From Hymenolepis diminuta (taxonomy: Eukaryota > Platyhelminthes > Cestoda > Cyclophyllidea > Hymenolepididae), in assembly GCA_900708905.1 (NCBI GenBank), contig CAADRB010000016.1:1803000-1866999 (forward strand): a stretch of DNA of 64,000 bases. The letters run 5' to 3'. Of this stretch, positions 34,628 through 62,768 are shown piece after piece (positions within the stretch are counted from its first letter, which is position 1; each line of letters opens with the position of its first letter). The position numbers and the translations under genes are program-made. The notes under the pieces were generated by a model, which searched no databases, had not been told where the DNA came from, and was given only the letters and a program-made list of their open reading frames with translations.

Positions 34628-34898
34628 TTAATCCAAGAGTTCCCCTTCAATAGGGTTATTACTTGTTCCCCCACCACCGTGACTATCACCACTGACCGCA
34701 GTAACACTATTGTTTGCATTAGTACATGTTGAGGAAGCAAGACAGTAGGAGAATTCAGGCATCATGTAGAGTTTTGAGGGAAGTCTATATAGGGTCTCAG
34801 GCGCAAGAGTAATCGGCCGTGTTCCCTGACTCGAACCTAGGGTCTTCACTCCAGAGATCAGACACAGAGGTCGGTTTTCCACTACACCACAGCTATTT
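34628..34898 (-). CDS. ZP gene terminal coding exon, overlapping a tRNA-SINE-like sequence
   Basis: Follows a ttttatag acceptor and joins the previous exon as AG+A. Encodes about 89 cytoplasmic residues (TRPITLAPETLYRLP, then a Gly-rich SHGGGGTSNNP) to TAA 34630-34628. The first 75 bases overlap pol III A- and B-box-like motifs on the same strand. The reading frame rests on phase and on openness over 90 codons, not on homology. Confidence 0.7.
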
Positions 34899-37800
34899 CT
34901 ATAAAATCGAGATTTCTAAATGTTTAGTAAGCAATATAATAGCCCAAACAATATGACAAAGGGAACTTACCTTGGAATATTCGAAATTTCAATCTCTGGA
35001 GCGTGGTTATTGGGTTCAACAGTTGTCGACGTTTCTAGCACGAACGTAGAATTTCCTGGTTGTTGATGATTGTCCAATATCCATTCTGGTTCGTTCTTTC
35101 GATGTTGAGTTCGATTAATGTGAGTATTTGCAGTAACGGGAACAAGGAGTGTAGGATGTACTTCATTCATATCCCCGTTTGCGTAAACTAAACCCCTTCG
35201 ATTATCTATTTGTGGTGAAGTGAAGAGATCTTGTCCACACTGAAGGTGTCGTCGATGGGGTAAAGTCTGATAGGTTTCATGAATACATGTGGAAGGAAGT
35301 GTATGGAAATGTTGATGAGTTGATTGGAACTGGGGAGGATTGTAGAATTGAATGTAATTCTGTTCTGGTTCATGTTGCAAGAAGGCGGCTGAAACAGATA
35401 TCTCATCAACTCCATTCTGAGGCAATAGATGACTAGGTTGAGTAGTAGGAGAAGGCTTCGATCCGTCGTTCGACTGACGTAAGGTGAGGAAATTTCCGTT
35501 AGGTGGACAGATTGTGAGGTTTGGAGATGAGGTGGAGGACTTAAGGTGAAATAGATAATGATTTCGAGAAACCAGACATCCACAGATCATCGAGAGGCAA
35601 AGCATAGCTCCCAGAGAGACCATTATGAGCAGTAGTTGAACTCTGGGCTGGCAGAACACGCTGGTACAGCTTTGAGTACCTTTAAAATCAGCAGGGAATT
35701 TTTACGTTCTTAGTAATTCATGCACTTTAAAGATAATCTCGCCGAGAATAAAACTAAGTTTTGAGGATTCGTCAATATCTCTCCTGATTGGAGAAGATTC
35801 AAATTATTCATTAGGTATGGGGAGGCGAAGTCAGCTGAATTCATTTACGTAAAAAGATAGGAGGAATAATTTGGATGACTCATCTACTTTCTTCCCCAAT
35901 TATGCTTTCAGCTATTCGCTAGAGAATCAAAATTGTTACTCAGTTCGAATAACGCGTTATTTTAGCGTGAATGAACGAACGCATTTGTCCAACAAGGAAG
36001 TTATCTGGTGCATTGAAACGAAATTTAACCGAGTCATTTGTCTTATTAATGATCGTATATCCCTGATTAATTTCCCCATGATTTTGTACCAAATTTTCCG
36101 CAGCGAAATTTGTATTTCTAAGTCGTCCCAAGTCTGACTTAATTACTAAAATGACTCATTCCCATTAGTTATCCCAACATAGGCCCGTTTGAGTTAGCTT
36201 ATGAATTTGCAACCACGGGTGTATAAAAGTGTCCTTCTAATATATTGGACTGTTCATTATCAGTCATTTATGAATTATGATTTTGGGTTTTTTTCTACCC
36301 ACATTTTTATTTGACTGTGTAACCTTCAGTTTTTTACCGACTGAGCTGTGAAAATTGCTAGAATAGAAACCAAATCAAGTTAATTTTCAATAATCTCTTT
36401 CTTCAAGGGAGAGATTCAAGTGTTTATACCCACCGTCAGTTTAGCAAAAGTACAAGTGGAATGAACAACAGAGAGTGGCTATTGATTTAAATATTTACCA
36501 GATGGAAATATCAGCAACTCTGGAGACAAATCTAGTACCATTTTGTGAAATCATCCATTAATACTGACTTTGAATAAGGTGATTGCCTAACACCTAAGTG
36601 AATATACCTAGTCTGATGGGTCTCGGGTCTATTGAAAAAGAGTTTTTCAACATATTCTGGGCAAAGAAATAGTATTCTGATGAAGACGTTCTTCGTTAGG
36701 ATAAAATTTAGTCAACTGCATCATCATTAATTTTACTCACCGAGAGAATTTGATTCGTCAGAATGATGAGGTGAGGGATTGAGCACCTCCAAAATAAGGG
36801 ATCGAACAGCGAAGTGGATTTTGGGGGGCATAAAGGTTGTACGCTGGTGTTTTTCTTGATTTCCACCACATTGATTGGGCTGTAAAAAAGTTATCTGCTA
36901 CATAAAAACTGTAAACTGTGAAATATCTTGCAAGATCACTTGTCTTCTCAACCATAGTTAGAAAAAAACGATCAATTAGCATTGAATATCGCAGACGATC
37001 ATGAGATACAATCTGGGGAACAGATCGTGAAATTTGAGTCCTGGAGCGCGAATCGATATTTGTACAACCCAAATCCAGAAATCGATATTGTTTTCAGTTT
37101 CTTTCAGATCATCTCCTCTTTATCATTTTTGGGCTTTCTGTCATTCGCTGTCAGTTGCTTCCCATAATTGAAAGTTGTAAATTTTTTTAATCACTGTGGT
37201 TAATACTAATGATCAATATTTCAAATAATTTTATTTTATGAAAAAGGTAATTTCAAATACGAAGTTTAAATATGAGAAAGGTTTAAATAATCGATAAAGG
37301 TCCAAATGTGCTAACTTCAAAAGAATTTGGTCAGAAAAAAACCAATTACAGATTCCTGTGGTCCACTGGGAGTTTAGCTCTCTGACTAGATGAAAGTTCA
37401 TTTGTAATGATAAATGAATCAGTTGCTGTGTCCTTCATTAATGCACGGTAGCATTCTTCATTCAGTGTAATAGACTTAATCAGATGGTGGCATTACTTAT
37501 TAAAAAGAATGACCCTCTTTATTGTATAAAATAATAAAAAATGAAATGAAAATTAATAAAAGAATAAGGAACAATTACATCTAGTAGCTAAATGTGTATT
37601 GGTACAATATAAGAGATTAAGTAGCATATGTCAATAGGCCTTATTTTAACTCCCCTCTTAACGAAAAGTTTTCTACATAATTTTCGCAAACGCGTGATTG
37701 GCTCACCGATTCCGTTAAGTCAATTACACCCCAATGCACAAAACTAACTTCACGGTATTGGATTAGTCGCCACATAACCGAAGCCATTAAAATCGACCCC

Positions 37801-40800
37801 CCTTGATTCACTCTCTGTCACCTAAATTAACTAATTATGCTTATATGAATTTATATCTTAAAACGAATTAAATTTCTCCCTCCCTACTTCGTTCCCTATT
37901 GAAGAACGAAGAGGCAAGATAGAAATATAGATATTCACATTTGAATGAACCGAAAAATTGCGTGCAACTGTCAAATTTGATTTTGGTTGGGCCACTCCCT
38001 GTATGAAAACAGTCAAGATCTACATCATTGATAAAAAATAGGATAGATGACTGGTCTCAGCTAAATTCTACCAATGATAGAACATTATTCAACTTTTCTT
38101 GCTTCAGGAGGTGGAGTAGAGCTCAGAAATCAAGCTGTTTGATTGCAAATTAGGAAAACAACAAGGAATCGAAATAGAAAGCTTCGAATAAAATGAAACT
38201 CGGTACTTATAAAGTGTGATGTACAAAAATTTGAATAGTTATTTTGAGATAAAATAGAAACGAATTAATTTTCCATCTAATTTAATTAAACTGATTTAAT
38301 CTAATTTAACCGATCCACGTCAATACGAAGGGTAGAAAGGAAAATATCCGACACTGAGAATGTTGTCTAGGTCATTCATAACGTTTCATGACATACTGAA
38401 TCATCTTAGACAACTTACAATAGTTGCTGAAACACTTTTTAATTTATAAGATATTCTCACAAAAATAATTTTAACTGTTAATAAGGAAAGACTAATCTGG
38501 TAAAGTTGTTTTTCTCGAACCTTTAGAGATTCAGAATTCCCAGAAACCGCAGAAAATATTTTGAATTCAAAAGTTGAAAATTCAATAGGGAAAGAAAACC
38601 AATGCAGTTAACATATTATTCCTGTTTGAATGCAAGTGTGATTTGCTCCCCTTTGTCTAGTTAATATTTCAGATTTCCATGTAGATCGCATAGTTTTGAC
38701 CTAAAACCGATATGATCTGTTTGTACACTAAATCCCACTATTCCTTCTTGATATTTATTTGATACTGCCAGATTCCAGACAGGTCACGCTGATGTCACAC
38801 CTGTCAATTATTAATACTTGGTGGTCATGAGATTTGATCTCGCTGAACATGCTACTAATCTCGAGCGCCACGAATGGCAATTTCATATCACTCCTTCAAC
38901 TCATTGAAAGAAACATATGCTAGAACTTATCTTAAGCGGAGGATTAACATCTTGAAAATTCTCTCATGAGAAGCTTTTATTCTGTTATTCATCTTCTAGG
39001 CAGTTTGACCAGAGCAGTTAGTCATATTTTTCACTGGATGGATATTGAGTCCATGAATTGGGACTCGGCAGACTTGTTATTATCACCCTGTCACAAAAAT
39101 AGTAGCAAATAATTACAACTATTACATACCACGTGTCTATTAATAGCACTTACTATAATTACGTGTCCTTGCCGTTCCATATGAAAATATCTCTTTCAGT
39201 CTTAGAAAAATTATCTTGTTGCCAGCGGCAATGGTTTAGGGTTATCAGCTTAAGTGCAAGTAAAAAGTTCATATGATATCTACTTTGTTCCATCCATCTG
39301 AGCCAACACTTTCCTTCAGTGATTAATGAGGCTATCATTTAAAAACACTTTGAAGAAGACGTTGACTACTATACGCAACCTTAATCCACACTAGCATTCA
39401 GCGTAATTTATACAAATTTCTGTACAATTAGTAAATGGAATTTATCTACGCAAACCTACTTCAAATTTCAGAAACTAGTCGATATGCCCGTTAAAATGAG
39501 GGCGAAATTTTTTCTGTTGGTTAACCAATTGAAATAATTCATTAAACATATCATATCATGTCATGTGTTCAGTCCTATTATTATCAGAATCCATGGAATA
39601 ACAAAATTTGGGCACGTTTTGAATATGATGTGCAGTACAAGAGGTCAATTAAGTTGTGAAGCAGGAGTGGACAGAAGAAGGATATCAATAAATCTTTGAA
39701 TCATCTGAATTCTTGATTTATCAGTACGTAATTCAGGCTGCTTACTTAGTATATTATAGATTTAGTTCGTTGAAACATTGCCTAATGTTCCATGGTTTGA
39801 CCCCTACGTCAGCGATATTCAGAACTAATCAATGATTTGGATAAAGTAAATGATGCATCATGGCTTTTATGACTTAGACAATAAAAAAGCCGCCATCTAA
39901 GATAATTTCAACCTTACGAAGCCTATTAGAGACTAGTTAGGTGAAACACTGCTTAAAATTTCACATAAATCTCTGTTAGCACGGATATGGGGAGAAATAA
40001 GAATTAATTCTTATGTGTTTGAATTGAAGCAATGCTACAGCGTATGGAAGTTAAGCATTTTAGGGAGCACCACTTACCAGACTGCACCAAGCTCGATGAG
40101 CACAAAGTCGAAATGCACAGACGATTTTTACAAGAATAGAGGAGGAGTTGGACTGAAAAGTGGAGGAATCTATGCGAGCTGATCCATTCGGATTGGAATT
40201 CTAAAACAAATAACAAAAAATTACATAGTTCCAATGGTTTATATTAGATTAAGTAGTCTAAAATAGTTTACTAGTTATGATGCAATATTTAGCTAATTCG
40301 TTCAATTCAAACAGAGAGCAGGTAGACGAAAGCCCTTCTACTAAGTTTGTTATTGTGCCTCCTCAGTTTATGAGTGACCTTACCTCGTGTCCGCATTCTG
40401 CATGCATGTAGCTATGACAAAGCCTAAGCTTACTCCATTTATTTAGGTGTTCTCGTTACTTGTAGTTGTTCAGCAATGTCGTTAAAGAATCCTAAAATCG
40501 GGAACTTAGAGAACAATTTGTACGGAATCCTAGAGGCAAAACCATAACATTTTCTCTTTTATAAAGATTTCTGCTTAGGACTGTGGCGGATGTTTCACAA
40601 ATACACCTGCTTGCTAAAGCTCAGTAATCCACTTAGAATTTCAACTAGTTGCTAACACATACAACTAGTCTCTAGCAGAGTCATCGAGTATAGATTTGCC
40701 CCTAAGATAACAAGAACAAAGGAGATGTTGAGTGGAGAGAGGTTGTTGCTCACTACGGCTCGCTGCAAAAAGCGTAGCCATTAAATACTATCAACGCTAA

Positions 40801-43800
40801 TACGCTACAGGGATATTGACCACTGATTGGTTGTGTTGGCCTCTGAACGCACGTCTCCACTTGCTCACTACGTGATCGGTTACACACCACACTTTCCAGA
40901 ATGTTCTAGCGCACGTGAGGTTCATTTGACCAACCTTAGTACCGTTGTAAGCTCCACAAGAGATAGGTTATCAGTATTGTTATTTTACTATTCGATACAA
41001 TATCAAGTAGCATTTGAGGTTTTGAATGTTCCAGTCAACATATCTTCGTGAAATTAAGTCAATCTTCGAATTGCTTAGCAGAAGCCAAAGTTTTATAGCA
41101 TTTTAGAGTTTTGGGAAAAGTCAATAGATACTTCTCACCGTTTTGGTTTAGCGAATAATAAAAAGCGAATCAACCAAGTTTTACTCACAAAATATTAAAC
41201 CTTATTTAGCATTTCAGTGATCAACAACTTATATTACTATTAAAATGCACTATAGAATATAAATGATACGTGTTTTTTTGAAGTTAAATGAACATTACCT
41301 GACCGGGATGAGTCGCAGACGAAATTATTACCATAAAAAACATTAACGAAATCATGCATCTTGCGTGCTTCTAGTTCATGGTTTTTTCGACGATTATTTT
41401 CTACTTTACGTTAATGGAGAGTCCATTAAAACGCTCCTAACTACGAATACATTATAGGAAAAACAGATAAGCCATCTTAAATGTCTTCTGGTTAAAGCCT
41501 TGATGGATGCTCATGAAATGAAGATTTGCGATTCTATTTTAATATTTCATAAAAATTTATATATTTAAGAATAAGTAAACAGTAACTCTTGCACTATGCG
41601 AAATGCATTGCCTCTGGTCTCATCTGTTTGCTCTCGGTGGTCAAAAGATACAAATAAATCGTAGTGGTATCATCAACAAGGAAAATAAATCAATCGGTCA
41701 AAGATCGGTGAATTTGGTGAACGTAATCTCACCCATGAAACTGGGAGTCAAATGACGAAGATTGTGCATTACAACATAATAAAGTAAGTCCTATTCTACT
41801 CTCCTGAATTCAAAAGAAAAAAAATAATGATAATCGTTTATTTAAACAATCCATTTAGAAGGATTTCAAAGGCTTTTAAGCGTTTGAGAGGAATAATAAA
41901 AAATAACCGCGACATTAATGAATAGTTTAGACTTGATCAGTTCCAGGTGAAGGCGTACATTTGTAACAAAGGAATTAGCATCCGGGTTCTCAGTGTCGGT
42001 CCACATGATAAACACTCTTTGAGATAGCAACTTGAGTGTAATAGATACAATGTAACACGATGCGATTGAAATAAAATGTGTTCTCTCTGAGATCTTATGG
42101 GTTTTGTACATTGTTCTCAATGCATTATAGATAATGTCATGTAAAGAAATTTGATTAAGGAATTAAATATTTGAACTTACCGGGGAGAGAACGAAGGCGG
42201 GGAATTGGGAGGAGATAATGGAAATGAAGGAAGAGGCAGTAGAGAGAGATTTGGGTGAAAATCCCATCGTTGGGGCATCACGACCAGGTTGGGCAAACAC
42301 ATAAGTTAGAAAATTTCCTCCAAAATCGGTTTCAGTGTTTGGACATCTATAAATATTTTTGAAACATTTTAGTATTTATTCAAAATTCATTTTCAGGATA
42401 TTGTAGTATGTGGTAGGATTGTCCATCTTCCCTCGCGATTAAAAAAAATTATGTTTAATCTTGTGATCACTAAAAGACAACAATGTTAAAATGAATTTCA
42501 TTTCATCTTGAAGTTTCCTTATTAGATTAAATATAGCACCCTTTTCTTTAATGGAATTAAAACAAATATTTAATAGACCATGGATATGTGAATGATATTT
42601 TTGGGCGGTTGGGAAATGGAATTTCTTAAATTCTTATAAAGATCTGTCTTTCCTGCCTATGTAAGTAAGGCACAAATTTCAACATAAATAAATGATCAGT
42701 TTTCCAAGCACTTAAGATGGGCAGAATTTTATTTTGTACTCTTAGTCTAAATGTTGGTTTTTTTTTCGAAAACATTATTTATGATCTTAGTCGTCAAGTG
42801 GTTTACATTTATTTTACAGTGAGGATCAATTTCGAAGTTCTTAGCATCGCTAATAGTGAATCCTAACCTTCGCGAATTGGCCAATCGATTTTACAAACGA
42901 ATAGACATATTTCTTTCCCTAACTGAATTAGAGATTCTACAATTTCTGGACATATTTGCCACCCCTTATATGACGGTACGTGAGTACTAATATGCTATAG
43001 GCTTCTCACAGAAGTTTGCCATGATTACAGCAGCCCTGACACAGTATGAAGAAAGGAGAAAACCAGTAGATTTTACCTTTCTTTGATTAATAAAGAATTG
43101 GTGTTTATAGGATAGGTTAGCTACCAGATTACGCAAGTACGGGTATTCGAAATAACCAGTAACTGACAAACGATATCCTTTACACAGAATTTCCATGAAT
43201 TTTGGTCAGAGGCATCAAAATATTCGATATTTCTATTTAGCTCTTCAAATAGTTGAATGCTAAAACTACCGGTATATGTAAAAAGTTACGAAGCTCACCG
43301 AGAATTCGGTCTACGTTAAAATAATGGAATTAAACTCAATCTTATAATATTCTTATCCCCGGATGAGTGCTAGTACGTACAAACTTCACTTTTGATTCAA
43401 TTGCATATGTTTTTTAGGCATTCTTAATTCACCCAGATTGTTGTCTGTATAGTCTGTCATGAAGCAACTGACTGTTGTGACTCAATTAGTCTGCGAGAAT
43501 ATTTGATTTGTCCCTTCGCCGACTTTATGACTGATTGGGATCGACCCATTAACAAGGAGCATTGATTATCAATAAATTTTAGGATCTATACGGAAACCGC
43601 ACTCAAAACATGTATCAAGCCAATCAGGGCAAATTACAATTTTGAGAGTGATATTCTACCAAATTACACTATAAATTACTCTACGCAGATATTTTCGAAA
43701 AGAATTGTAAACTGCTTATGATTCTTATAAGACGCCTTAAATTTGAATACCCTCGTTATCCAAGAATTCTTCCTCTGAATATGTGGAAAACTTGATAGAA

Positions 43801-46800
43801 GAAATAATACTAACCTCATGTCCACTAGATCATATTGCTACCATCTCAACTATTAGAAGGAAAGTGTTGGATGATATGGTCAGCCATCTGAGTTATTCAA
43901 ATGAACAATAAATCGTGGACAAGTCGGACAAGATCCCCTAGATATTGAAGTTTGAAACTTTGTAACTTGACGCACTAAGTACACATTGTACAACCTGAGT
44001 GCAAAAATCAAATGAGGTAAGATAGCCTCATGATAGCAAGATTCTTTTGATAGCCTGACTCAAATCTCAATTTATACTCGATCCTTTTTGCTCTTAACAT
44101 ATAGTAAACAATTTTTCGATTCCTTATTTTTAGATATTACTTCCTCTATTGAAAATTTTGAGGTAAGATTCTATCATTGACATGATAGATTTCACAAATT
44201 TTGAAATGTCGTATGCATGACTTACCCTCGATCGATGATGTTAGCATGCATTACGCCGCCTGAGCTCGCGTGGCAAGATTCCACTGCAAACGTCGTGTAA
44301 GTTGCTGCAAAAGATGGAACGATGGAACATAGATCAGTTAAAAGGTTCCTATTCTGCGCAATTAGGTGGTTATTCAATACCCATTGCTGTGAGTAAATCG
44401 TTCTTTTATTGCAAGGAGTTAGGATAGCAAAGTTGCCCTATATGGTAGTTTTGTATCATATTGGTTATCTGCTCAAAATCACCAAGTCAGAAATGATGAT
44501 GAGAGAACACCTTCTTTACGACTTTATCGACAAATATTAGTTCGTAGAATAAAATCCTTAGTCTCTTAGCCCCCAAAAATTAACCCAGTAAGTCTATAAG
44601 AAGAGTTCACTTTGCCACCAGTGCAGGGTGATCTCAACTTTTCTTTATGATTTAAACCAGAAATATTAGTAAACTCTTTATGCAAAACTTCGCCGATCCC
44701 TTAATAGAGTCATGGCTGTGATTGACTCAGGTCCAGTATGATTCGTAAGAAGGCTGAACTACCTTACACTAAGGGCACCAAAAACTGTTAATGAAAATTG
44801 ATGAATCTTAAAGTAATTGAAGGCTTAAGTGCAGCGTGTAACTAAAACTATGAAAGTTTTATGCGGGCCGTCAAAATATAAAAAGCGTGCGTCCGCCTAT
44901 TGATAAGGCTGACAGAGCCTACGAGACCACATGTGGGATGTGAATTACCAATCTCGAGTCAAAATAAGGGTTGAGTCTTTGGGCCCTTTTTGTGGCTTTC
45001 CTCCCCCGTTCCAATTTAGCAAGCAGAACTTCTTTTAATCTTCTTTCATGCACACTCTGTATATGTTTGCATGTGTTGTGGATTAAAAAGGAGTGAATTT
45101 GATCTTTATATACTAGCTTAATAAGTTCCTGTTTTAAAAATGTTATAACTAGATAAAAGAAGTCTATCAACTCTATCAGCTCTCCACTGGTCTACTGCTC
45201 TCCAACTGTTAACCGTCACATGGAGTATTTGTCTAGGAATGGGCACCTGTATATACTCGTTACTTATTCTACCTGCTTTAGTGCTGGCCAATAAAATTGG
45301 AAATACTGTTTCTGTAAATGCAAATCTATTATCAGTGATAATAATATCAATAAAGTTCAAGGGACAGAGCGGAATTGTTTTTCACCATAGTCATATTTAA
45401 AATAGGGCCTATTTCCTTACAAGTGGGATCAAATAGAGTAGCCTTCAATTGTATTGGCGACGCTAGCAGAACCTTTGAGACGAGTTGTTTAGATGAAGAA
45501 ACAGCTTTGAGGGAGAGATCAAACGCAGCTGGAGTTGGTCTCACATTGTCCAAATTCCACTGATCAGACAGCCGTTGGGACCTGTGTATGCAAACGATAA
45601 GATGCAGCTATGGAGTATAAAAGAGCCATTACAGAGCGCTATCTAAGTTACCCCAACAGTATATTTAGTTTGAGTGATGGTGAGTGGTGGCTTTTGTGCA
45701 TTTGGATGCTTCACTTAATCTTGAAAGACCAACTTTAACGATTTTCTACTTGGTATACTCATTTGTGGGAAGAAATTGAAGAAGTTGAGAAAGCAGCAAT
45801 TCAGAAAAAATAATACAGAAATTCTAGGATACTGAGGGAGTCGAATAACCATCTCCACTATAATTAAATTTGTCTTCCCTATTTCTTCATCGATTTTATT
45901 AAATAATTTTCTTTTTTATCAAAACACCAAAATGCTGAAAAACATGACCCTAAGTCTATTCTTTGCATTGGGATGGGCAGTTCACATTCCACTAATGGTT
46001 TTCAAGTTGTCTGTCAATTATATTAATATGCGGATCCATTTAAACATTATTCGGGCTGGAAATGCTATTAAACCGGCTTTGGGTTGGCCTTCAACCATCA
46101 AATATATGAAGAGATTTTAATTCGTGAAAACTACTATTATGTACATTAATTTAAAAGTTCGTAAAAATTACATTTACCGTTACTGATTAAAGGTAGAGGG
46201 ATTATGACATTTAGAGGTTTAAGCATAACCCTAAGGTGTGATCACGATTGAGCCTTGGAGAGTATTCCGTTCAGTTAAGGCTCAGCTTTAAAGGAGTTGC
46301 AGATATTGGTTCTCAGGACCGAAGACGTATCTGGTAGGTAAAGAAGACCTACACACTTATTTACTAATTTTAATAGGTTAGATGGTTTCACAGGACCGTT
46401 AATTGACATTTTGTATTTTAATAGCGCAATAAATAGCCTTTTTTGAATTAATAAATCATCTTTAAAGTAATTTATTTTGTTTCAGTCGATATTATATTGA
46501 CGATTAAGCCTTATATAAAAAATAAAATGCTTCTAATATGCCTAAAAGTATGTTGATTCAAAATAAGCATTCAGTGGCTTTAAGTTTTCTATCTCATTCC
46601 CACCTCTCTACCCCAAAAGTCAGCTTACCTCTTTACGCCGAAGTATTTACACCAAAGTAGCCTGATATTCATATACATTAGTTATAAGTTCCTAATAAGG
46701 CATGGGTGAGAACTGATAAAATGTACTCTACCTGATCATTCACGCAGATATCGCCGCTGCTGTTAGCTTAAAACAATGTCCACTGAACATAAAATGTGTA

Positions 46801-49800
46801 TTCACTCTTATTCTTATTAAAAACAAGAAGAGCAAGTAATTTTAGGCGTGGATAGGAAGGAGGAGGTTGTCAAGTAAGCACACAGTTGAGTGAGCAGGAA
46901 ACACCTAATCCCTGGTGATTGTACCGTCGCAAACCATTGTTTCTCAATCCCTTTCTCTGCGCCAAGAGAAGAGTACAGGCGAAATAATAACTGCGTATGT
47001 TATTGTCTCTCACTTGTTCTCTCACTAACTTATTTTGACAGCTCGTGTTGACAGAGGAAACATAAGGAGAATGGGCGATAGAGTGTTGTGAGATGATACG
47101 AGGAGGTAGATTATTTATAGCTGCGGAAATTGAGTTCACAATGATTTAAAGGTTGATTTTTGAAGACACGGGATAGGTGAAAAGACTTAATATATGAATG
47201 ATATGGAAAAAATGCTTTCGACTTAGAAGAACCGTTCGGAATAAATTATGACGAATTCTAAATCATCTCCTTCATGAAAATTTTCAGACGGTTAACTGAT
47301 CAAGAACATATCAAGTTATTGTCATACTGTGAGGCCTGGAAACTTTTGGAACAAGTACGAATGTGACGAAAGACGCTACAGAAGTATGCAAAGACCTTTA
47401 GCAGCCATTCTGCGAAACTTATGATCCCAAGGCCTATAATAAAGTTTTGAAGGGATTAAGAAACTGCAGGCGCATATTTGTGCATAAATTGAATTTCAGC
47501 TGAGACCTCGATGTTATTTTCTTTTTCATCAAATCATTTGAATTTTAAAATAGGGTTTCTTCTCAATCACTCTGTTATTCATAAATTAAAGTGTCTTTTT
47601 AACTGCGTTTAGAAGAATAATTAATAATCAAGTTTGACGCTCCTAACTGACTTCTTTTTGGTGTCTCATAACAATCAAAAGTTCAGTGATTAAATGTCAT
47701 TATCTGTAATTCAGTTTTTGCATAATTAACAAACATTCCAAAACATGGAACACTTCCAATAACCATTAGAAATTCCCAAGCCCATTTGAAGATGCACTCA
47801 AAATGCTCGACTTTGGTAGAGGAAAGGTATCGTGAAGTCATTCTTACGGGGAAATCATGTTATACAACCTCTCATGCTGACCAAAATTAGCCAGGATTGT
47901 TGGTTATCCACACCACTGGATGGATGGAAATTGATCTTGTGACCTTTGACTGGACGGACGTGCGCATTGGCCGCTGCGCCATTGCAAACAATAACCAATG
48001 GCAGTTTTTAATACATGTCAACAAATGAATAACTGAATGCAAAAGCAGCACGAATGATGAAAAGATCAACATGTACGGTTATGATAACCAATTTGACTGC
48101 ATTTGCGCCGGTTCATTCGACCTCGTCAAAATAAAATAGTTATAAAATATTAACGTCTAATTATTTAAGGGATAGCCAATTTGATGTTCGGATGCACAAA
48201 ATGCGTATAAGGTGTAAGAAGTTCTCGTTACCACAAAACCCATGACGAATTTAAGGCGGATGTTCAAGTCAGATATTTTGCGCTAAATTACCTACTTCTG
48301 CAGGGATGGGCCTCCCACAAGCCCAATGCTCTATAATGGTCGTATCTTGCCCACTTTTTGCCGTAGATACTCGAGATATCCTTGATCTATCTATTATTTC
48401 TCTCTCCTAATCGCCGCTTTACAACTTCACCACGGTCTCCACTTCATTTTGTTGTGCCTTGGAGATTACAACAAGATGGATAGGCAATAGATTATGTAGA
48501 CGCTCTGAAGCCACGCATAACACTCCTTAGACACCTTCCTTTTCAACACATTTTTACACTCACGCATACATTTTAGTCAAGTTCATTAGATGGTTGCCAT
48601 CGTGAATTCCGATAATTTTTAAATTTAATTTTAGAAATATTGCAGAGCAGTAGATTTTAATTCAGCAACATTATTTGGTATAAAATCTATATGTGATTAC
48701 CGATTTCATTCAGCAGATACACCTCAGACCTGACGGAAAAACACAAAAATCTACAAGCTGCAAATCGATTTTCAGCGCCATTTTTGAAGGTGGGGGAGAT
48801 AACGCTGATAAATGATTTAATGGGTGATGAGATGAAAAATAGCAAAATCTAGCCAATCTACATATTTGTAATTATCTTAGTCCCTAATTGACCTATCGGA
48901 ACTGATGAGATGATGCATGAGGTCAGTGTTAAAGACACTAGCAATCTTCACCAGTCTGATTGAAAGTATTTCCATGGTTATTGATCGGTGTGTTTCCAAC
49001 CTCTCCTAGATATTCATCTTAATGCTGAATTCTGTGTAAATTGGTTCTTCGTAAATACATATTTTCTCATTCTGATCATCATCGCAACCATCAGCCATGC
49101 ATCTTGTCTTTATGGATATAGTTAAGTAAATAACCGGGGAGAAATGTCATAGTAAGTCATTCCGATTTTTGAATGTGCATAAATGGCTCATCAGGAATTT
49201 AAATTGCCGCCTATTATTTGAAATGACTTAAATAAATTCAGACTGAATTCTTACCAAAGACCCTCTGATTGTTGCCGTTGTGAGGTCTGATGATCACGGG
49301 ATTTAATTTTAGACATACTGCTACTACCGCTTCTAGTAACAGTTATAGTGGACGCTGCTGATTTGGCCAAAGCAGCATTACTGGTTACATTGGCGACAGC
49401 GGCGGAGGCGGAGGAGCGAATGAATGTTGAGCAGCGGAGATCAAAACGCACGTCAATGCTGCTTTGCCACACATGAGCATCCGTTCTTACCTCCAAAAGT
49501 CCCTTCATACTCACCACTGTCTGTTGGCGAGTTGAAAAAACAAACATTCATGCATGAGATTAAACAATTATTCTCAAATACCAAAAGCATATGTCGAATT
49601 TACCATTTAAACCGGAATTAATTGTAGCAGGTAGTTAGTAGGATTGAAATGAATTGGATTCGATCATAAAAACTTAAAATTTCAAATAAGTAAATAGCGT
49701 AGTTACTACTATTTTTAATGCATTATAATTTAATTTGATGAATTACCTAAAAGGTAACTTAATAAATGTTAAAGTGCACTGAAATTGAATGTCTCTCTAT

Positions 49801-52800
49801 GACTCTGCTGGGATAATTGAGTGGGAGTTGAATAAAACTGCTAATTGTTAATTGGTAAATTGTAAAATTAGAAATATTTTTGTTTCATCATGAGTAATAA
49901 TGATAATAATAACAATAATTCTAGTTCTTGGGGTTAACACGCACCTCTTCACTTATTTTGATTGTAATTGCACTACTTGATATGAAATCATTTAGAAATC
50001 CAGGGCAAATTCTTGAAATTGGAACTTTGAAATATTTGTACACGTGGCAGTGAATTATGACTATTTGCAAAAGTAAAGATATAATGGTGGAATTAGCGTT
50101 GAAGACAAGCAAGCGTCTTCCGATGGCTTTGAATACTAACTGTAGAACTCCCCAAACCCATTGTTATGAAATAATTACAACCGATTGATCTCTGAAAGAG
50201 ACGAAATGACAGCGTAAATTACAGAGACTGTCCCTTCGGTCACCGTAAGCTTTAAAAAGACTTGGCATATTAAAATTGTGTAATTAATGACATACGCACT
50301 CAAAAACGGAATGGAAATCATTTCCTCTTCACACTTATTGTATATTCACTCAAAAGAATACGATAGCAAATATGAAATTCGTGTATTACGGTATTAATTA
50401 TAAAGGAAATCTTCAGAGTGTGTAGCAAGCTAAATTTTTAAAATAAAATTTATTACCTCATTTTTAAAGTACATCAGTCCGCAAGGCAGTCGATTTTGAC
50501 TTTTATCCACATCCAGATTCACACAAAAATTTCGAAGAGGTCCCAACTCCCATCCCGAGGCAACTAGAAGTGTGCCATCATGAGCGAAGTCGTAAGGTTT
50601 CAACACACAGTTTCTTGAAATTACAGCGTCTGCTTGTCGTTCACCGGTTAAGTAGGCGATAGCGGTGCCATCTGTTAGAGATTGGTGGAGCTGTTGATAA
50701 GGTGGCCAATTTGGAGGAAGAAAACAGGCCAGAAATCGATTCGGTGAGCACGAAACATGAACTGAAAGTGCAAAAAAAACGTTATCCACTGCAAAGCAAT
50801 ACAGAATTCTATTAGTACAAGTGTTGTAGGCCAAATCGAATATTTACGAAGCATTTAATGGAGTACACTAAGAATATATTCAGTGCATTCATAAGTTCAT
50901 CCTCCATACACTGAACCATTGATCATTTGGATTCTTCAGTGAGACTTGGGAATGAAAAACCACCCACTGCTACCAATATTAAACAACCAGTTTGACGATC
51001 ATCATTTATTTTCTCAATAGTGGACCGTAACAAATGTTTTTCCTTCCTGTTCTAGAGTGTGAATAGTTTGTGGCTATATTAGGAAACAACTAAGCAAGTT
51101 ATAAAAACAGGGGAAGTATCTAAGCACGGAGAAAGATAGAAAAGTTCGATTGGAGAGATGGAAGTCATAATATCAAGATGGACTATTTGGGGTGCTTGTA
51201 TGTTTCGTTAATTGTGTGATAGACGAGTTCAATTTAAGAACTGAGGCTCAGATTGTTTGATAATTGAAAGGTCAATACATTTAACTGGATGATTTTTCCG
51301 GTCATCTTGATATATCTGCTCCTTCTGGCGGTGAAAGATCAGCGACTAGGTAGCTGATAAGCTTTTGAAGAGCTTACTCAAGATGAAACCCCATAAAAAG
51401 AATAATAATTTTAACAATAAACTTAGTCCATAAGGATTTCCTTCATATTCGACGTATGAAATACCTGATATAATATTTGAAGGATTGAAGTTGCTCTAAT
51501 CCTCTCCACACTAACTGCAGAAAATTTAAGTACAGAAGGTCCGAAGAATATTCCATTTAATCCTTCGAATGGTGTTCGAACAAGACTTAAGGGCTGTTAA
51601 AAATATACATCTTAATACCATCAATTTGATTAAAACCATTCCATTTTGAGCAGAGATATTTCATTGCATATGAAAGAAAAAAAACTCATCCCAAAGTAGT
51701 CATTATTACAAAATAATTACTAGTTCGAAATGAATAACGGAAAGTTCAAGACACAGGAATAGCAGCAAACAGAAATAACTGCAAAATGAATTAAATTTTA
51801 AATTATTATTAATTTTTAAAAATTATTGAGAATTTCACAATTTATGCTCGTTATTCAAATTCATGAAATTTAGATTGAATTTACGAAATTGGATGAAAGT
51901 TATTCGCTATTACAATTGTTGGAGTAAAGTGTAGTCCAATAATCCATTAGACATACCAAAGAATAGTTGAGTCTCTTTTCTCCCCATCTTTGTTGCTATA
52001 AGAGTAGTTAGAGTGATTACCCTAGGGAAATAACTTCTCCACTCACTTCCTTTTTTATTTTTCCCCAAATTAAGTACTAGGAGCATCCCACTTTCCTCCC
52101 CACATAATAATATGGGGCTAAATAATGACAGACCCCATTAGTATCTACCCGGTTTTCTCTGCTGGCATGCTACTACTCTGTTGGACTAATGGAATGTCTA
52201 AGAAAGAACGGATGGGAGCACCTTCCACTCCTGCTCCTCACTTGCTCTCATTAACGTATTCCTTTTCTCTCAACACCCCAACACACATACTCTAAAACCA
52301 TTGTTTTTAGGTAGAGTTGTAAATTAAGTTTGGTGGGCGAAGAGTTGTACGGTGATATTGATGAAAATTCTGTTTGTCTCAGAATGGCTAGATTTGTAGA
52401 AAATTATTTACAACTGTCGAATAATGAAAGTCGGTAGAAATGAAAATTGTTCATATTTGTTAATAGTACTATCTTCTTTATCACAGATTAAAACTTGATT
52501 CAATCGTGAAATTGTGCAGTATGATACTTTTAAATATTTACATCGAAATAATAGTTTATTTAAAGAACGCCCTGTTTGTTTTCAGGTTCCAAGATGTAAG
52601 ATCTACAATGATCTGTGGTGATTTATTTCGTACTGACTATTATCTGATTATATTGAACCGTTGATTAGTTTTGAAGAGTGTTAAATATATTTCGTCCAAG
52701 GTTTACAAGAATCTGGGAAAAATGATTTTACTTATTGTCACTGAAACGGCTGAAAATCGCGAATAACCCAAACTTATCGAAAGGAATTTTCTTCACTTTC

Positions 52801-55800: not shown

Positions 55801-58800
55801 GAGTATTTTTGAGTCAAGCATGTTAAATTACTGCACGATGGTTAAATAGCTGCAGCAGTTTTATTAAGACACGAAATACTCTCTAAGGCCAGTGGTAATT
55901 TTAAGTTCTATCAAAAACTTCTGAACGGTATAAAGTAGAATCTATAAAATTCCTGCTCCATTTTTCAATGTCCATTTTCTACAACTAATTTTGTTTAAAT
56001 ATCTGTTTTGTTTTAATTACAAATAACGACTTTTTTCTTTTGTTAATATAAGGGGAAAATCTTCACCAAAATTTTCAACTGTTGCTAATTTGCGGAAATG
56101 AAAATAAAGATAAATATTTTCTGAAAGATAGTACAAAATAAAAACTAATTTCAAAATCACTTGCCAAGTGGCCTTCCACAATTTTCACCAGCAGAATCAC
56201 TAATCCTTGAATCAAGGTCGGTCATTGCGCTTATTTCTTTTCCCTTCTCCAAGATAATATCTAGAGCTGGCCAGTCATGTGAGTAGGAGATGGACATTGG
56301 TTCACGAGATTCGTGCATTTCTGGATGAACTGGGGAGAGATTAAACGAGGTGCCGTTTCGTGAGCAGAAATTATCATCAGGTATTCCGTCACCGTTTAAA
56401 TCCACGCAGATATCAGAATCATGACCATTGCTATTTCGTTGGCGTTTGCATGGAACCTGCTTAACTGGAAAAGGAAAACATTTTAATAACAGGAAATATA
56501 ACACTGAATCACCTTATTTATTACAACTGAATAAAAGATCTAGCAAGAGGTACGTTTTACATTATGATTTTAGTGTCTGCCATAAAGTCCGATGTTGTTC
56601 GTATTCAATTGGGAAAACATTACTGTCTCGAAAAAATATGGGTACCGGTATGTTGTTGGAAATGTTTTCAACTATATTTAGTACCAAAGCATCAGCTAAA
56701 AAGGAGAGTTTGCGACGATATTCTTGCTTCCTGCTCCAGGAATACAATGAAAAACATGAGCTGTCACTGATAAAATCTATTGAAGAAATCGAAATATATT
56801 CTGCGAATACTCCTCGGCCTCAATTTAAAATGCTTAATATGTCGAGTATTCTTTAAACGGTTAATTATTTTTATGCAATGAATGAACTAAACTAAGTCTT
56901 TGGTTTAATATTTTAACATTAATAAACATTTAAATGGAAGAAAAATATTTTTTAAATTTCATTTTGAAAGGGGAATCCTGGAATAAAGCAAATTATTCGA
57001 GCAATTAAACCTGGAATCGAGTTAACTGGGTAGGAGAACTTGTAATCAATTCTCAAATATTCTTCGAATCATTTGAAAGACCACTTTTTACTTAACGCAA
57101 TTATAAATGCTTTAGGTTGTATCACCTCAAATATTTCCACCTCTTCGGTTTAGTTTCAATTCAGAAAATTAAGACAATTTCAAATGTTCTGGTAATAAGA
57201 GTAAATATATGAGCAACGATTAACAAGGTATCTTTGCTGATATGTTTTAAATACGAAATTTATAAGATTAACAAGAATGAACCAGCAATTTACAGCATTC
57301 ATGATAGTGAAGGCTTTGCTGATAGACTGGAAAGTAACCTGATTTGCAACGACAGGTACGCGGGTCTCCATTTCGTGAGGAGCATTCTGCATTTCGTGGT
57401 CTGCATATTAGATCTGCGTCATTGCATAGCTCACCAACGTCCACTAATTAATAAAAGAAATTAATTGAAATAAATAGTATCAATTTTGTAATTGAGGGTA
57501 AGAGCAAAACATAAATACAAATTTAAAAATTTAAATTACCAAGAATTGCTCTACAAAATGCCCACGGAGATAGACTCTGGTCATTTGAGGCATAAACTTG
57601 TTTTGGCATGGGCATCGCGGTCTTGTAGGGGCACGAGCAGCCAAATTTTGGTCTTAAAGAGGGAAAACTGCCTTTTATGCAATATTTGAGTAGTATTAAT
57701 ATAACGCGATGCATTTTTGAGCATGTTTTTATATAACTTCCTTTAGTATTTAGAACAAATAAATTAAAAAACTGTTGTAATTATATATTCAAAACATAGA
57801 TGTCCCTTATCAAAAAAACTTAAAAAAATGTAGCATAAACACAAAATTATTTTCAAGTGTTAAAAAAGGATTAATAATAGAAAGAAAGAAAAAGTGTGCT
57901 CTCTGTACCATTTATTAAATGTTAAATAAAGTAATGAATGAAGAAACTTACGTTTTATTTTCACTATCACCTTTATCTGGCGTATCGGCGTAGAAGCAAA
58001 TCCCATTGATTTGGGTACACTTCTCGCAGAAGCTATTGTTAGTTTGTTTTTCTGCCAAATTCCCTATAAAATCCGAAGAAAAAAGGCAGAAAATAATGCC
58101 CAGTCTCACAATATTTGCCCATTTTTCAAAACAGGCGTTGGATTTGACAATTCAACCAAAAAACCTGAGCTTCATTAATATTTAATCGACACAGTGGGTT
58201 ATTTTTATCTTTACACGCTCCCCACAATCTCAAAGAGAATGCAGCAGAATGAATTTTATGCGAAATGTGCCACGCTTATGGTTTTTTGCCCACTTTCAAG
58301 TTGGTCGTTCACAGGAACAGCACAGGGAATTAATTTGTAACGCTCTAGTTTACTAAGCAAATTGAAAACCATGCGGAAATGATGAAAGTAGCCAACAATA
58401 TGGCAGATAAAAGGAGTCCCGTACGAAGTGGTAAACAAAATATTGCCAACAACAATTTGTTTTTAAAGGGTCAGTACTGTTGCGAAAAAGCTTCACTCAT
58501 AATGATTACGATCCTATTGTTAATTTACGATTATAAATTAAATTATGTAAAGCCATGATACAAAGACACAATTAGTGGTTTAATAAACAAGAAAAAACGA
58601 AATAATTTAAAAAAATATTTCTTAAATTTAATTTATTAATACTAAATTTGTCCAAATTGAATCAATCAACAATCCGACAAATATGCAATAACTGAAATTA
58701 GAAAATGTAGATGAATGAAAATCTTCATTCTCAAATCTCCATACTCCCTGTAATTATTGTCCAGTTACCCTGACTGCTGAGCTCTAAACTGATGCTTTCA

Positions 58801-61800: not shown

Positions 61801-62768
61801 GTACGTAATGGATTATGCTGTTTAAAGTGATTACTGCAGAATTAGTTTGAACTGTAAAAATTCCATTTATTCCATTTAAAAAATTTTACTGAAAGGAAGA
61901 CAAAATGTAAACACCGTTTTTAGATAAGCCATTCGAAAACTGTTGGAACCCTTTTCTTACTATTGGTTCTCTCTCCCTTTAGTCATCATTTTTCATGAAT
62001 TTTGTGACTTTCTTTTTTAAATATGCAGGCTTTTAATTTGCTGCTAGCGGAAATAACTCTGGAAATGATGCAAGGAATCATTCTTACTCAAAGAGAAAAA
62101 GGAGGGTGAATATAGAGACACGAATTAACTTACAAATGAGAGAGAAATTCCTTGCGTTTTATCTAATGAAAGCCAGAGTATGAGACGGTCAAGTGTGTAA
62201 AGAAATTACTCTGTGAATCAAATGTTCAAATAAATAAATAAATAAAGACCATAAAATCTCAACATTTATTAAAAATTCAATTCCATTCTCTACCCTTTAT
62301 CCCTTTTTAAATTAATTTACTGTTCCACATGCATAGATACCTTCCAACGAATAAAAGTAGAAAAATGACCCTCTCGTGGATAACGTCAATCCTAAATTAA
62401 ACTACATAGTGCGCTAACGAAATATTTTAATATCTATTTGTAATAGAATTTCTAAAAGCAAATAATAAATTTTCAAGTAAATCTAATTCTGGTAAAAGTT
62501 TCTTGCTATTAATACTCTCTCCCATGATATTGCATTTTTTATGGTAAAATAATAGATTCATTTATTCAAATATAGGAAACGTAAATTCCTGAATATAATA
62601 AAACGAGTATAATCAAGAAATTCAAAGTAGTTGACTTACGACAAGCATGTTCTTGAGCGACATATACAGTTCCTCCAGGACACGCGCAGAAACCGGCTCC
62701 TGGATGACAAATGCTGTTTTTGACGTGAATGCAGTCCTTGTCAACATGACAGCTCAGTGACGTTAGTA
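34628..62768 (-). CDS. Large membrane-anchored protein with EB/EGF-like modules and a ZP domain, 5' incomplete
   Basis: Exons read on the minus strand: 62768-62640, 58858-58769, 58063-57952, 57652-57540, 57443-57294, 56464-56161, (55025-54886, weak), 50761-50457, 49520-49255, 45581-45421, 44304-44226, 42346-42181, 40200-40078, 36879-36741, 35679-34971 and 34898-34628. Every junction is GT-AG and phase-consistent, and the whole frame closes at 1084 residues plus TAA 34630-34628. Order: cysteine-rich modules, a DLNGDGIPDD calcium-loop-like segment, ZP-N, ZP-C, one transmembrane helix, long tail. ZP proteins polymerise outside the cell or act as apical matrix receptors. This one is expected at the cell surface with its C-terminus inside. 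The first exon found lacks an in-frame ATG, so the signal peptide lies in upstream exons not identified. The family beyond 'ZP protein' is unknown. Confidence 0.82.
34790..34898 (-). mobile_element. tRNA-derived SINE-like sequence with A and B boxes
   Basis: On the minus strand, tggtgtagtgg at 34889-34879 matches the pol III A-box, and ggttcgagtca at 34837-34827 matches the B-box at 10 of 11 positions. About 41 bases separate them, within the normal range. The stretch does not fold into a full tRNA cloverleaf: the T-stem pairs only partly. It is therefore read as a SINE head or tRNA pseudogene rather than a tRNA gene. It lies inside the last coding exon in sense orientation. The 3' limit is unknown. 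Confidence 0.5.
34971..35679 (-). CDS. ZP gene exon with transmembrane helix and cytoplasmic tail
   Basis: Follows a tttaaag acceptor. After QSCTSVFCQPR comes a 22-residue hydrophobic helix (LLLIMVSLGAMLCLSMICG) and a short CLVSRNH stop-transfer. About 200 residues of Ser/Thr/Pro/His/Asn-rich, probably disordered cytoplasmic tail follow. The tail contains several Tyr residues in polar settings (NYIQFYNPP, ETYQTLP) that could be phosphorylated, which is inference only. No GFFKR-type integrin motif or kinase domain. The donor is AG/GTAAGT. Confidence 0.85.
35680..36740 (-). other. ZP gene intron before the transmembrane exon
   Basis: AT-rich with GT-AG ends. Open frames on both strands at 35871-36137 look like composition effects. 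No element recognised. Confidence 0.5.
36741..50761 (-). CDS. ZP domain (ZP-N and ZP-C), seven exons
   Basis: Exons 50761-50457, 49520-49255, 45581-45421, 44304-44226, 42346-42181, 40200-40078 and 36879-36741. ZP-N: HVSCSPNRFLACF, SRNCVLKPYDF, then NRLPCGLMYFKNE joined to TVVSMKGLLEVR and VRFDLRC, the paired-cysteine pattern of ZP-N. A Ser/Thr-rich linker follows. ZP-C: PIQLKATLFDP, then TFAVESCHASSGG, then IIDRGCPNTETDFGG, then VKIVCAFRLCAHRAWC and PNQCGG. This reproduces the order V-x-C, D-x-GCP and the cysteine cluster of cuticlin and tectorin-type ZP-C modules. After the cysteine cluster, NQEKHQR ends in a K-x-x-R sequence, a minimal furin-type site where ZP proteins are usually cut. That role is inferred. 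Confidence 0.88.
36880..40077 (-). other. ZP gene intron (3.2 kb)
   Basis: AT-rich. Contains a possible SINE relic near 38757-38890. No other feature recognised. Confidence 0.5.
38757..38890 (-). mobile_element. Possible SINE relic
   Basis: On the minus strand, attagtagca is followed by cagcgagatcaaatctcatg. The gcgagatcaa phrase recurs in the element at 54797-54900. The A-box match is poor. Relationship to that element is suggested, not shown. Confidence 0.25.
40201..42180 (-). other. ZP gene intron (2.0 kb)
   Basis: No ZP exon is required here by phase. A + strand frame at 40827-41051 ends in TLSTV/GTAAGC-like sequence and could contain a short exon of an opposite-strand gene, but it starts at TTG directly after a stop and has no clear acceptor. 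Confidence 0.4.
42836..43565 (+). CDS. Possible 3' exons of an opposite-strand gene nested in a ZP intron
   Basis: The + strand frame from about 42832 to 42973 reads ASLIVNPNLRELANRFYKR then LTELEILQFLDIF, up to an ATGACG/GTACGT donor (phase 0). A phase-0 acceptor at 43436 (cacccag) opens a frame reading IVCHEATDCCDS and REYLICPFADFMTDWDRP to TGA 43563-43565, with AATAAA at 43571. The left border is unclear: the strong acceptor at 42820 gives a stop in this frame, and only an AG eight bases later works. No family recognised. Without transcript or homology evidence it may be chance. Confidence 0.27.
44305..45420 (-). other. ZP gene intron with coding-like minus-strand frames
   Basis: Just after the exon ending at 45421, two overlapping minus-strand frames run through 45360-44919. 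They contain VNSWRAVDQWRADRVDRLL and, in the next frame, SVHERRLKEVLLAKLERG. The basic, Arg-rich composition is unlike the surroundings and could be a broken retroelement or a small nested gene. I do not recognise it. Confidence 0.3.
45582..49254 (-). other. ZP gene intron (3.7 kb)
   Basis: Contains a + strand 62-codon frame (45932-46120, listed separately) and a minus-strand frame at 47139-46870 that opens at GTG and lies after a ttccgcag acceptor. Its phase does not fit insertion into the ZP transcript. Nothing else is recognised. Confidence 0.4.
45932..46120 (+). CDS. Small hydrophobic ORF, hypothetical
   Basis: A complete 62-residue frame from an ATG in a good context (caccaaaATG). It has a hydrophobic segment near the N-terminus (LSLFFALGWAVHIPLMVF) and a basic end (STIKYMKRF). 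It could be a tiny membrane protein nested in the intron on the opposite strand. No family recognised and no splice support, so a chance frame is as likely. Confidence 0.2.
   Translation: MLKNMTLSLFFALGWAVHIPLMVFKLSVNYINMRIHLNIIRAGNAIKPALGWPSTIKYMKRF
54797..54900 (+). mobile_element. SINE-like sequence, + strand
   Basis: tggtttagtgg at 54809-54819 matches the A-box and resembles the one at 34889-34879. gagatcaatgt at 54845-54855 is a weak B-box. The block is richer in G and C than its surroundings. It overlaps, in antisense, the end of the uncertain exon 55025-54886 and its open extension. Confidence 0.33.
54886..55025 (-). CDS. Uncertain ZP gene exon before the ZP domain
   Basis: The acceptor gcttttgcag and a weak CCA/GTGCGA donor give a 140-base exon of the required phase (VKFILQDISYFQSPL ... 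LSCSPDLT). It would join directly to HVSC at the start of ZP-N. The frame stays open beyond the donor to a TGA at 54799-54797, so the exon could instead be a terminal exon of a short secreted isoform. The downstream part overlaps SINE-like DNA. Confidence 0.33.
56161..56464 (-). CDS. ZP gene exon with calcium-loop-like segment
   Basis: Follows a strong ttttccttttccag acceptor. Encodes about 101 residues starting KQVPCKRQRNSNGHDSD, then CVDLNGDGIPDDNFC, in which D-x-N-x-D-G-x-x-D-D looks like the calcium loop of thrombospondin type 3 or EF-hand repeats, framed by two cysteines. The rest is Ser/Glu/Asp-rich. The donor is AA/GTGATT. An open + strand frame (56428-56856) overlaps antisense and is rejected. 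Confidence 0.75.
57294..58063 (-). CDS. ZP gene EB/EGF-like module exons
   Basis: Exons 58063-57952, 57652-57540 and 57443-57294 join in phase. They read NSFCEKCTQINGICFYAD, then KFGCSCPYKTAMPMP and LSPWAFCRAIL, then VGELCNDADLICRPRNAECS, NGDPRTCRCKSGYFPV and HYHEC. The spacing (C-x-x-C, NGIC, C-x-C-P, final C; then C..C..C..C-x-C..C) is that of EB or EGF-like extracellular modules. The acceptor of 57652 could be 15 bases further upstream in the same frame. Disulfide-bonded extracellular protein-binding modules are inferred. Confidence 0.75.
58769..58858 (-). CDS. ZP gene 90-base symmetric exon, probable
   Basis: Encodes CKDNLADLHSPNCCQNLSVE and nine more residues between an attaaag acceptor and an AGG/GTAACT donor, phase 1 on both sides. 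The neighbours also join directly in phase without it, so it may be a cassette exon. The three cysteines fit a module linker. Confidence 0.5.
58859..62639 (-). other. ZP gene intron (3.8 kb)
   Basis: Very AT-rich. Includes a short AAAT microsatellite at 62234-62254 outside any exon. No further EB-module exon was recognised. Confidence 0.5.
62640..62768 (-). CDS. ZP gene first identified exon, EB-type module
   Basis: Between a tattttcttcacttag acceptor and a C/GTAAGT donor. Reads LSCHVDKDCIHVKNSICHPG, then GFCACPGGTVYVAQEHAC: six cysteines in EB-module order. The frame stays open to 62847 upstream but begins at GTG with no ATG, so this is an internal exon and the start lies further right. Confidence 0.75.

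What the first reader, a model, noticed from the sequence alone, without database searches (positions are those of the whole stretch)
34628..62768. EB-module plus ZP-domain transmembrane protein of unusual architecture
Splice sites and phases assemble 15-16 exons into a 1084-codon frame with cysteine-rich modules, a calcium-loop-like segment, a full ZP domain, a transmembrane helix and a long tail. Most described ZP proteins have short tails, so a tail of about 310 residues suggests signalling or cytoskeletal contact. The combination looks undescribed to me, and EB modules are mainly known from ecdysozoans.
Basis: partly seen in the sequence, partly recalled or inferred. Interest (0 to 1): 0.75.

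Follow-up and report, generated by a model that had tools for sequence, protein, structure and literature searches.

The report
Tapeworm transmembrane ZP-domain receptor-like gene
This stretch of a tapeworm genome carries one real, conserved gene for a cell-surface protein built from cysteine-rich modules, a zona-pellucida domain, one membrane span and a long inner tail; relatives were found only in parasitic flatworms, and no study of what it does was found.

Summary
On the minus strand lies one gene of 15 exons and 1,078 residues. Fourteen exons are in the window (62768-34628); exon 1, with start codon and hydrophobic N-terminus, lies outside at 66730-66517. Four other tapeworms have near-full-length orthologs; the closest match is Hymenolepis weldensis. 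The ZP module is real: Pfam PF00100 passes its cut-off in 2 of 6 orthologs though not in the window's protein, and Foldseek with two AlphaFold models ranks solved ZP proteins first. "EB" is not established: no tested module reaches Pfam's cut-off, and M4 fits an EGF model slightly better. The loop DLNGDGIPD and a 289-residue tail are confirmed, but tails of 277-402 also occur in paralogs. All 21 relatives found are tapeworm or fluke proteins; the genome has a second copy on another contig. None of the 17 members with a detected membrane span has the classical furin site, and tapeworm orthologs lack an aromatic residue that paralogs keep. I read it as a membrane-held ZP receptor or anchor; that mechanism is inferred.

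The parts
62640..62768 (-). Exon 2: cysteine-rich module M2 (phase 1 in, phase 1 out)
   Evidence: 88-91% identical to Taenia crassiceps and Echinococcus orthologs by tblastn; splice sites and phase
57952..58063 (-). Exon 3: first half of module M3 (CxxC...G.C type)
   Evidence: tblastn, phase
57540..57652 (-). Exon 4: second half of module M3 (FGCSCPYKTAMP...FCRAIL)
   Evidence: tblastn with P0001, phase
57294..57443 (-). Exon 5: module M4, EB/EGF-like (Pfam EGF_3 19.0 bits, EB 17.5 bits, both below cut-off)
   Evidence: tblastn, Pfam on the piece, phase
56165..56464 (-). Exon 6: module M5 with calcium-loop-like DLNGDGIPD; followed by a GC-AG intron (G|GCAAGT)
   Evidence: tblastn, loop pattern, splice site
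50457..50761 (-). Exon 7: ZP-N subdomain, first part
   Evidence: 77% identical to P0001; fold match of the homologous region of P0006 and P0004 to uromodulin
49255..49520 (-). Exon 8: end of ZP-N (VRFDLRC) and low-complexity linker
   Evidence: tblastn, phase
45421..45581 (-). Exon 9: start of ZP-C
   Evidence: 89% identical to P0001; part of the ZP-C piece scoring PF00100 at 19.9 bits, below cut-off
44226..44304 (-). Exon 10: ZP-C, FAVESCHAS...IIDRG
   Evidence: tblastn with P0001, phase
42181..42346 (-). Exon 11: ZP-C, CPNTE...
   Evidence: tblastn, phase
40078..40200 (-). Exon 12: ZP-C, IVCAFRLCAHRAWCSL
   Evidence: tblastn, phase
36741..36879 (-). Exon 13: last ZP-C cysteine and segment between ZP and membrane (no R-x-[KR]-R site)
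   Evidence: tblastn, furin-site scan
34971..35679 (-). Exon 14: C-x4-C pair, transmembrane helix (about residues 766-789) and most of the tail
   Evidence: tblastn, hydropathy, phase
34628..34898 (-). Exon 15: end of the tail (LYRLPSKLYMMPEFSYCL) and stop codon
   Evidence: tblastn with P0001, phase

Best explanation
A single-pass (type I) membrane protein of parasitic flatworms: hydrophobic signal-like N-terminus, five cysteine-rich modules (M1-M5, the last with a calcium-loop-like segment), ZP-N plus ZP-C, a short stalk with a conserved C-x4-C, one transmembrane helix, and a cytoplasmic tail of 289 residues for which no structure was predicted. Shown: gene, architecture, ZP fold (on orthologs), conservation across tapeworms, relatives in flukes. 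Inferred: because it lacks the classical furin site, and because the tapeworm form has a non-aromatic residue at a ZP-N position where its relatives keep an aromatic one, it most likely stays on the membrane and does not form filaments by itself. On that reading the outer modules bind an extracellular partner (matrix or ligand), the ZP module dimerises or contacts ligand, and the tail couples to trafficking, signalling or cytoskeletal proteins.
Against: No expression, localisation or binding data. The looser R-x-x-R motif occurs in 8 of 17 members, including two Taenia proteins 53 residues before the membrane, so cleavage is not excluded. LET-653, which lacks the tyrosine, still joins a matrix, and PMC4970718 keeps polymers as a reasonable model for it (passages), so loss of the residue does not prove non-polymerisation. 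That my alignment column is the published tyrosine is inferred, not superposed. The models are weak: mean pLDDT 50.6 and 34.2, and they are of orthologs, not of the window's protein. Tail tyrosine conservation is not significant (p = 0.057), and Mesocestoides keeps only 2 of the 6 tyrosines that are invariant in the other five.
Confidence: 0.5

Rival explanations
1. A conventional apical-matrix ZP protein: the ectodomain is cleaved near the membrane, polymerises, and lines the tegument, protonephridia or reproductive ducts; the tail only prevents early assembly.
For: [quoted passage not shown] Foldseek's best hits are filament formers, uromodulin and egg-coat ZP proteins. Two Taenia orthologs have R-x-x-R 53 residues before the membrane.
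Against: No classical R-x-[KR]-R in 17 of 17 members with a detected span; non-aromatic residue at the ZP-N column in 5 of 5 tapeworm ortholog rows that cover it; tail longer than an assembly block seems to need (inference).
Confidence: 0.25
2. A co-receptor for a TGF-beta/BMP-type ligand, working like vertebrate endoglin or betaglycan but of separate origin.
Against: No ligand-binding residue was tested. The tail is much longer than those of endoglin and betaglycan (recalled, about 40-50 residues).
Confidence: 0.15
3. The model joins two genes: an N-terminal cysteine-rich secreted protein and a C-terminal ZP membrane protein.
For: Public models in Hymenolepis weldensis are split into P0007 (N-terminal part) and P0003 (ZP-C to tail).
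Against: Single models over 96-99% of the query in four other tapeworms and long single models in several flukes; matching splice phases throughout; the paralog on contig C6 has the same order.
Confidence: 0.03

Closest known systems
Uncharacterised flatworm orthologs and paralogs (e.g. Echinococcus multilocularis EmuJ_000926400; Schistosoma haematobium MS3_00010468, UniRef 'ZP domain-containing protein')
   Same: Same module order, ZP region, C-x4-C before the membrane span, tail
   Different: Paralog rows keep an aromatic at the ZP-N column; tail lengths run from 79 to 402 residues; Anoplocephala paralog P0009 lacks the calcium-loop pattern
Endoglin and betaglycan (TGF-beta co-receptors)
   Same: ZP module without the classical furin site here; best VIA-align rows for ZP-C
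   Different: Cysteine-rich module array instead of their N-terminal domains; tail of 289 residues; ligand unknown (their domain layout and tail length are recalled)
Uromodulin and egg-coat ZP proteins
   Same: ZP-N plus ZP-C fold; Foldseek's best hits
   Different: Those polymerise; here there is no classical furin site and the ZP-N column is not aromatic in the tapeworm orthologs
Mollusc EGFZP shell-matrix protein (table passage in PMC13361971)
   Same: EGF-like modules together with a ZP domain in a lophotrochozoan
   Different: Described there as a shell-matrix protein; no sequence comparison was made here

Membership tests
ZP-domain proteins | Pfam ZP-C profile PF00100 at cut-off | tested here: inconclusive
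   Over the 24.6-bit cut-off in P0004 (27.9) and P0006 (25.4), below in P0002 (22.2), no match in the other 3 of 6 orthologs; window's final protein none, its ZP-C piece 19.9; 3 of 15 rows of A4 match at all
ZP-domain proteins | ZP-N plus ZP-C fold | tested here: met
ZP-domain proteins | Conserved cysteines: typically four in ZP-N, four, six or eight in ZP-C (passage of PMC7665627) | tested here: met
   Window protein: six cysteines in ZP-N (344-471) and six in ZP-C (594-710); most of these columns are conserved in the family, some flukes lack part of the ZP-C set
Polymerising ZP proteins | Furin site R-x-[KR]-R between ZP-C and the membrane | tested here: not met
   0 of 17 members with a detected span, the window's among them; the looser R-x-x-R in 8 of 17, not in the window
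Polymerising ZP proteins | Aromatic (tyrosine) residue in ZP-N | tested here: inconclusive
   Non-aromatic in 5 of 5 tapeworm ortholog rows with a residue and in the window; equivalence to the published tyrosine rests on sequence alignment only
EB module (PF01683) | Pfam EB profile at cut-off | tested here: not met
   M4 alone 17.5 of 24.3 bits, below EGF_3 at 19.0; M1+M2 of the window no match; no EB hit in full-length scans. M3 and M5 were not scanned alone
TGF-beta co-receptors (endoglin, betaglycan) | Binding of a TGF-beta or BMP ligand | not testable with these tools
   Only a fold resemblance of ZP-C

The most novel reading that the evidence does not exclude
A flatworm family of membrane-held ZP receptors with long signalling tails: the tapeworm branch lost the ZP-N aromatic residue linked to filament formation and became a non-polymerising surface co-receptor, arrived at independently of vertebrate endoglin and betaglycan.
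Probability: 0.2. Interest if true: 0.7.

Novelty: new variant of a known kind. Interest (0 to 1): 0.45.

Why it matters
A 2026 review (PMC13361971, passages read) says that direct molecular and genetic study of individual ZP genes in flatworms is missing. This gene gives a defined, conserved target with a worked-out exon structure, relatives in tapeworms and flukes, and a testable contrast: paralogs with and without the ZP-N aromatic. If it is a surface receptor, it would be a new kind of signalling or anchoring protein in worms of medical and veterinary importance.

Tried and rejected
Rejected: ORFs at 55152-55025 and 55039-54800 as exons (no counterpart in orthologs; the second has no Pfam hit). 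Rejected: two separate genes (see rivals). A dynamic-programming gene finder used 11 anchors and frames that I chose by eye, so its agreement is not independent; the ortholog matches are. Its codon model was trained on long open frames from kinase loci and had little power. One search had exon 7 two bases too long and gave a broken frame; one search corrected it.

Tested and not supporting: tail tyrosine conservation, p = 0.057, and only 2 of the 6 invariant tyrosines are kept in Mesocestoides. No PF00100 hit in the window's final protein; its only match at E<=10 is a phage tail-fibre model at 15.9 of 22.5 bits, which I take as chance. Profile search of solved structures by sequence found no ZP protein with A1 or A4; the ZP evidence from the PDB is by fold only. 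First AlphaFold model (P0004) had mean pLDDT 34.2. PF00100 in a six-frame search of the genome found nothing, with the control genomes silent too. NCBIfam gave one sub-threshold match over 4 proteins. The tree (14 ectodomain pieces) groups the window with Anoplocephala P0001 (100/100) and with the other three tapeworm orthologs used (100/100), but the placements of P0009 and P0017 are flagged as long branches.

Paper searches used to look for prior description. One search held 453 papers, of which 15 were listed. Of papers, I saw passages only of PMC13361971, PMC8638415, PMC7665627 and PMC4970718; the rest were search listings. The only gene-level mention found is Smp_244190 'ZP domain-containing protein' in a table of PMC8638415; whether it belongs to this family was not tested.

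Full report
WHAT IS THERE. The window lies on contig C61 of a 170.6 Mb genome. Cutting the minus strand into frames and splice sites gave candidate exons. A draft protein of 1,014 residues typed from these found six proteins: Anoplocephala perfoliata P0001 (61% identity, 99% of the query), Taenia crassiceps P0002 (54%, 99%), Hymenolepis weldensis P0003 (95%, 54%), Echinococcus multilocularis P0004 (EmuJ_000926400; 55%, 96%), Taenia asiatica P0005 (53%, 99%) and Mesocestoides corti P0006 (50%, 64%). The genome is therefore that of a tapeworm close to Hymenolepis weldensis; the species was not determined.

GENE MODEL. tblastn of three orthologs against the window plus 10 kb of neighbouring sequence fixed the exons. 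The final model has 15 exons, 3,237 coding bases with the stop, and 1,078 residues. Thirteen introns are GT-AG; one, after exon 6, is GC-AG (G|GCAAGT). Exon 1 (66730-66517) is outside the window. It starts MIWMFIVILEPWWMVKADEYHVV, and a stop codon lies upstream in frame; no signal-peptide predictor was run, only hydropathy. Modules M2 (exon 2), M3 (exons 3 and 4 together), M4 (exon 5) and M5 (exon 6) each begin and end in phase 1, so each can be left out without shifting the frame. The public Anoplocephala model lacks M2 and M4, and the Taenia asiatica model lacks M3 (alignment A1), which may be alternative splicing or annotation. Control: with P0001 as query the window gives 11 matches at E<1e-5, all minus strand; 20 windows shuffled base by base within 2-kb blocks give 0 each, best 25.0 bits.

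CYSTEINE-RICH MODULES. The cysteines of M1, M2 and M4 follow a C-C-C-CxC-C spacing conserved across the family rows that cover them (columns). Pfam does not decide their type: M4 alone scores EGF_3 19.0 and EB 17.5 bits, both below cut-off; M1+M2 score nothing; the same region of a Schistosoma relative scores EGF_Mua-3 at 17.1, also below cut-off. I call them EB/EGF-like. The loop pattern Dx[ND]x[ND]GxxD occurs in 17 of 22 sequences (the window plus P0001-P0021); it is missing in P0002 (one changed position), in P0009, and in the shorter models P0003, P0006 and P0011.

FAMILY. The three searches gave 21 distinct proteins, P0001-P0021, all named as tapeworm or fluke proteins (Clonorchis, Opisthorchis, Schistosoma, Heterobilharzia, Calicophoron among the flukes). 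The search needs shared five-residue words and similar length, and only the 7,994 best candidates were scored, so absence from planarians or other animals is not shown. The window's genome has 17 matches to paralog P0009: 14 on contig C6 (3986023-4010214) and three on C61 that are exons 1, 2 and 5 of this gene. So there are at least two copies; counts from that tool are lower bounds.

MEMBRANE AND TAIL. Seventeen of 22 sequences have a detected span; the five without are P0007, P0012, P0016, P0018 and P0021. Of the 17, all have C-x4-C next to the span, none has R-x-[KR]-R in the 130 residues before it, and 8 have the looser R-x-x-R. Tails are 267-299 residues in this gene and its orthologs (289 here), 277 in P0009, 385-402 in P0013-P0015 and 79-153 in the other flukes. 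The long tail is therefore not unique to this gene. Of 288 tail residues counted, 110 are invariant in five species (Mesocestoides left out), among them six of eight tyrosines; that excess is not significant (p = 0.057), and Mesocestoides keeps two of the six. Matches such as YIQF and YQTL to sorting signals, or YANG and YMMP to SH2-type motifs, rest on recalled consensus patterns and prove nothing.

A CONTRAST WITHIN THE FAMILY. In alignment A4 one ZP-N column holds Y or F in 9 of 9 rows of flukes and P0009, and I or V in 5 of 5 tapeworm ortholog rows with a residue there (P0003 has a gap). The window has M at this place (VVSMKGLLEV, aligned by eye). Passages of PMC7665627 and PMC4970718 report that a ZP-N tyrosine present in most polymerising ZP proteins is missing in endoglin and LET-653. 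If the column is the same residue, the tapeworm gene resembles these. Two cautions: I could not verify the residue by superposition, and LET-653 is nevertheless built into a matrix, so the loss alone does not settle the matter.

LITERATURE. PMC13361971 (passages only) states that ZP genes are known in flatworms from genomic surveys but not characterised individually. Ten searches (listed in Tried and rejected) found no description of this gene or architecture in the held open-access library; most subscription papers are not in it.

VERDICT. New variant of a known kind. Mechanism inferred, confidence about 0.5.

Noticed in passing
contig C6:3986023-4010214, minus strand (loci L032-L042), same genome: A second, paralogous gene of the same family, 64-91% identical match by match to Anoplocephala P0009, with the same order of modules.
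   Followed up: partly
window 56165 (exon 6 donor): A GC-AG intron (G|GCAAGT) that a GT-only gene finder would miss.
   Followed up: yes
P0003 and P0007 against window 62768-34628: The public Hymenolepis weldensis annotation splits this gene into at least two models (ACTXT7_001986 and ACTXT7_001984); the first residues of P0003 resemble a stretch inside intron 8 (about 47.9-48.0 kb) and may be a false or alternative first exon.
   Followed up: partly
window 55039-54800, minus strand: An 80-codon open frame with raised GC (0.43) inside intron 6, without Pfam hit and absent from the orthologs; unexplained.
   Followed up: partly
window 1-64000: No tRNA (bacterial-code scan) and no Rfam family at the gathering score; the part below 34 kb was not searched for protein genes.
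   Followed up: no
contig C106 around 1.09-1.13 Mb, same genome: Six protein-kinase matches, each in one open frame without stops, on both strands.
   Followed up: no
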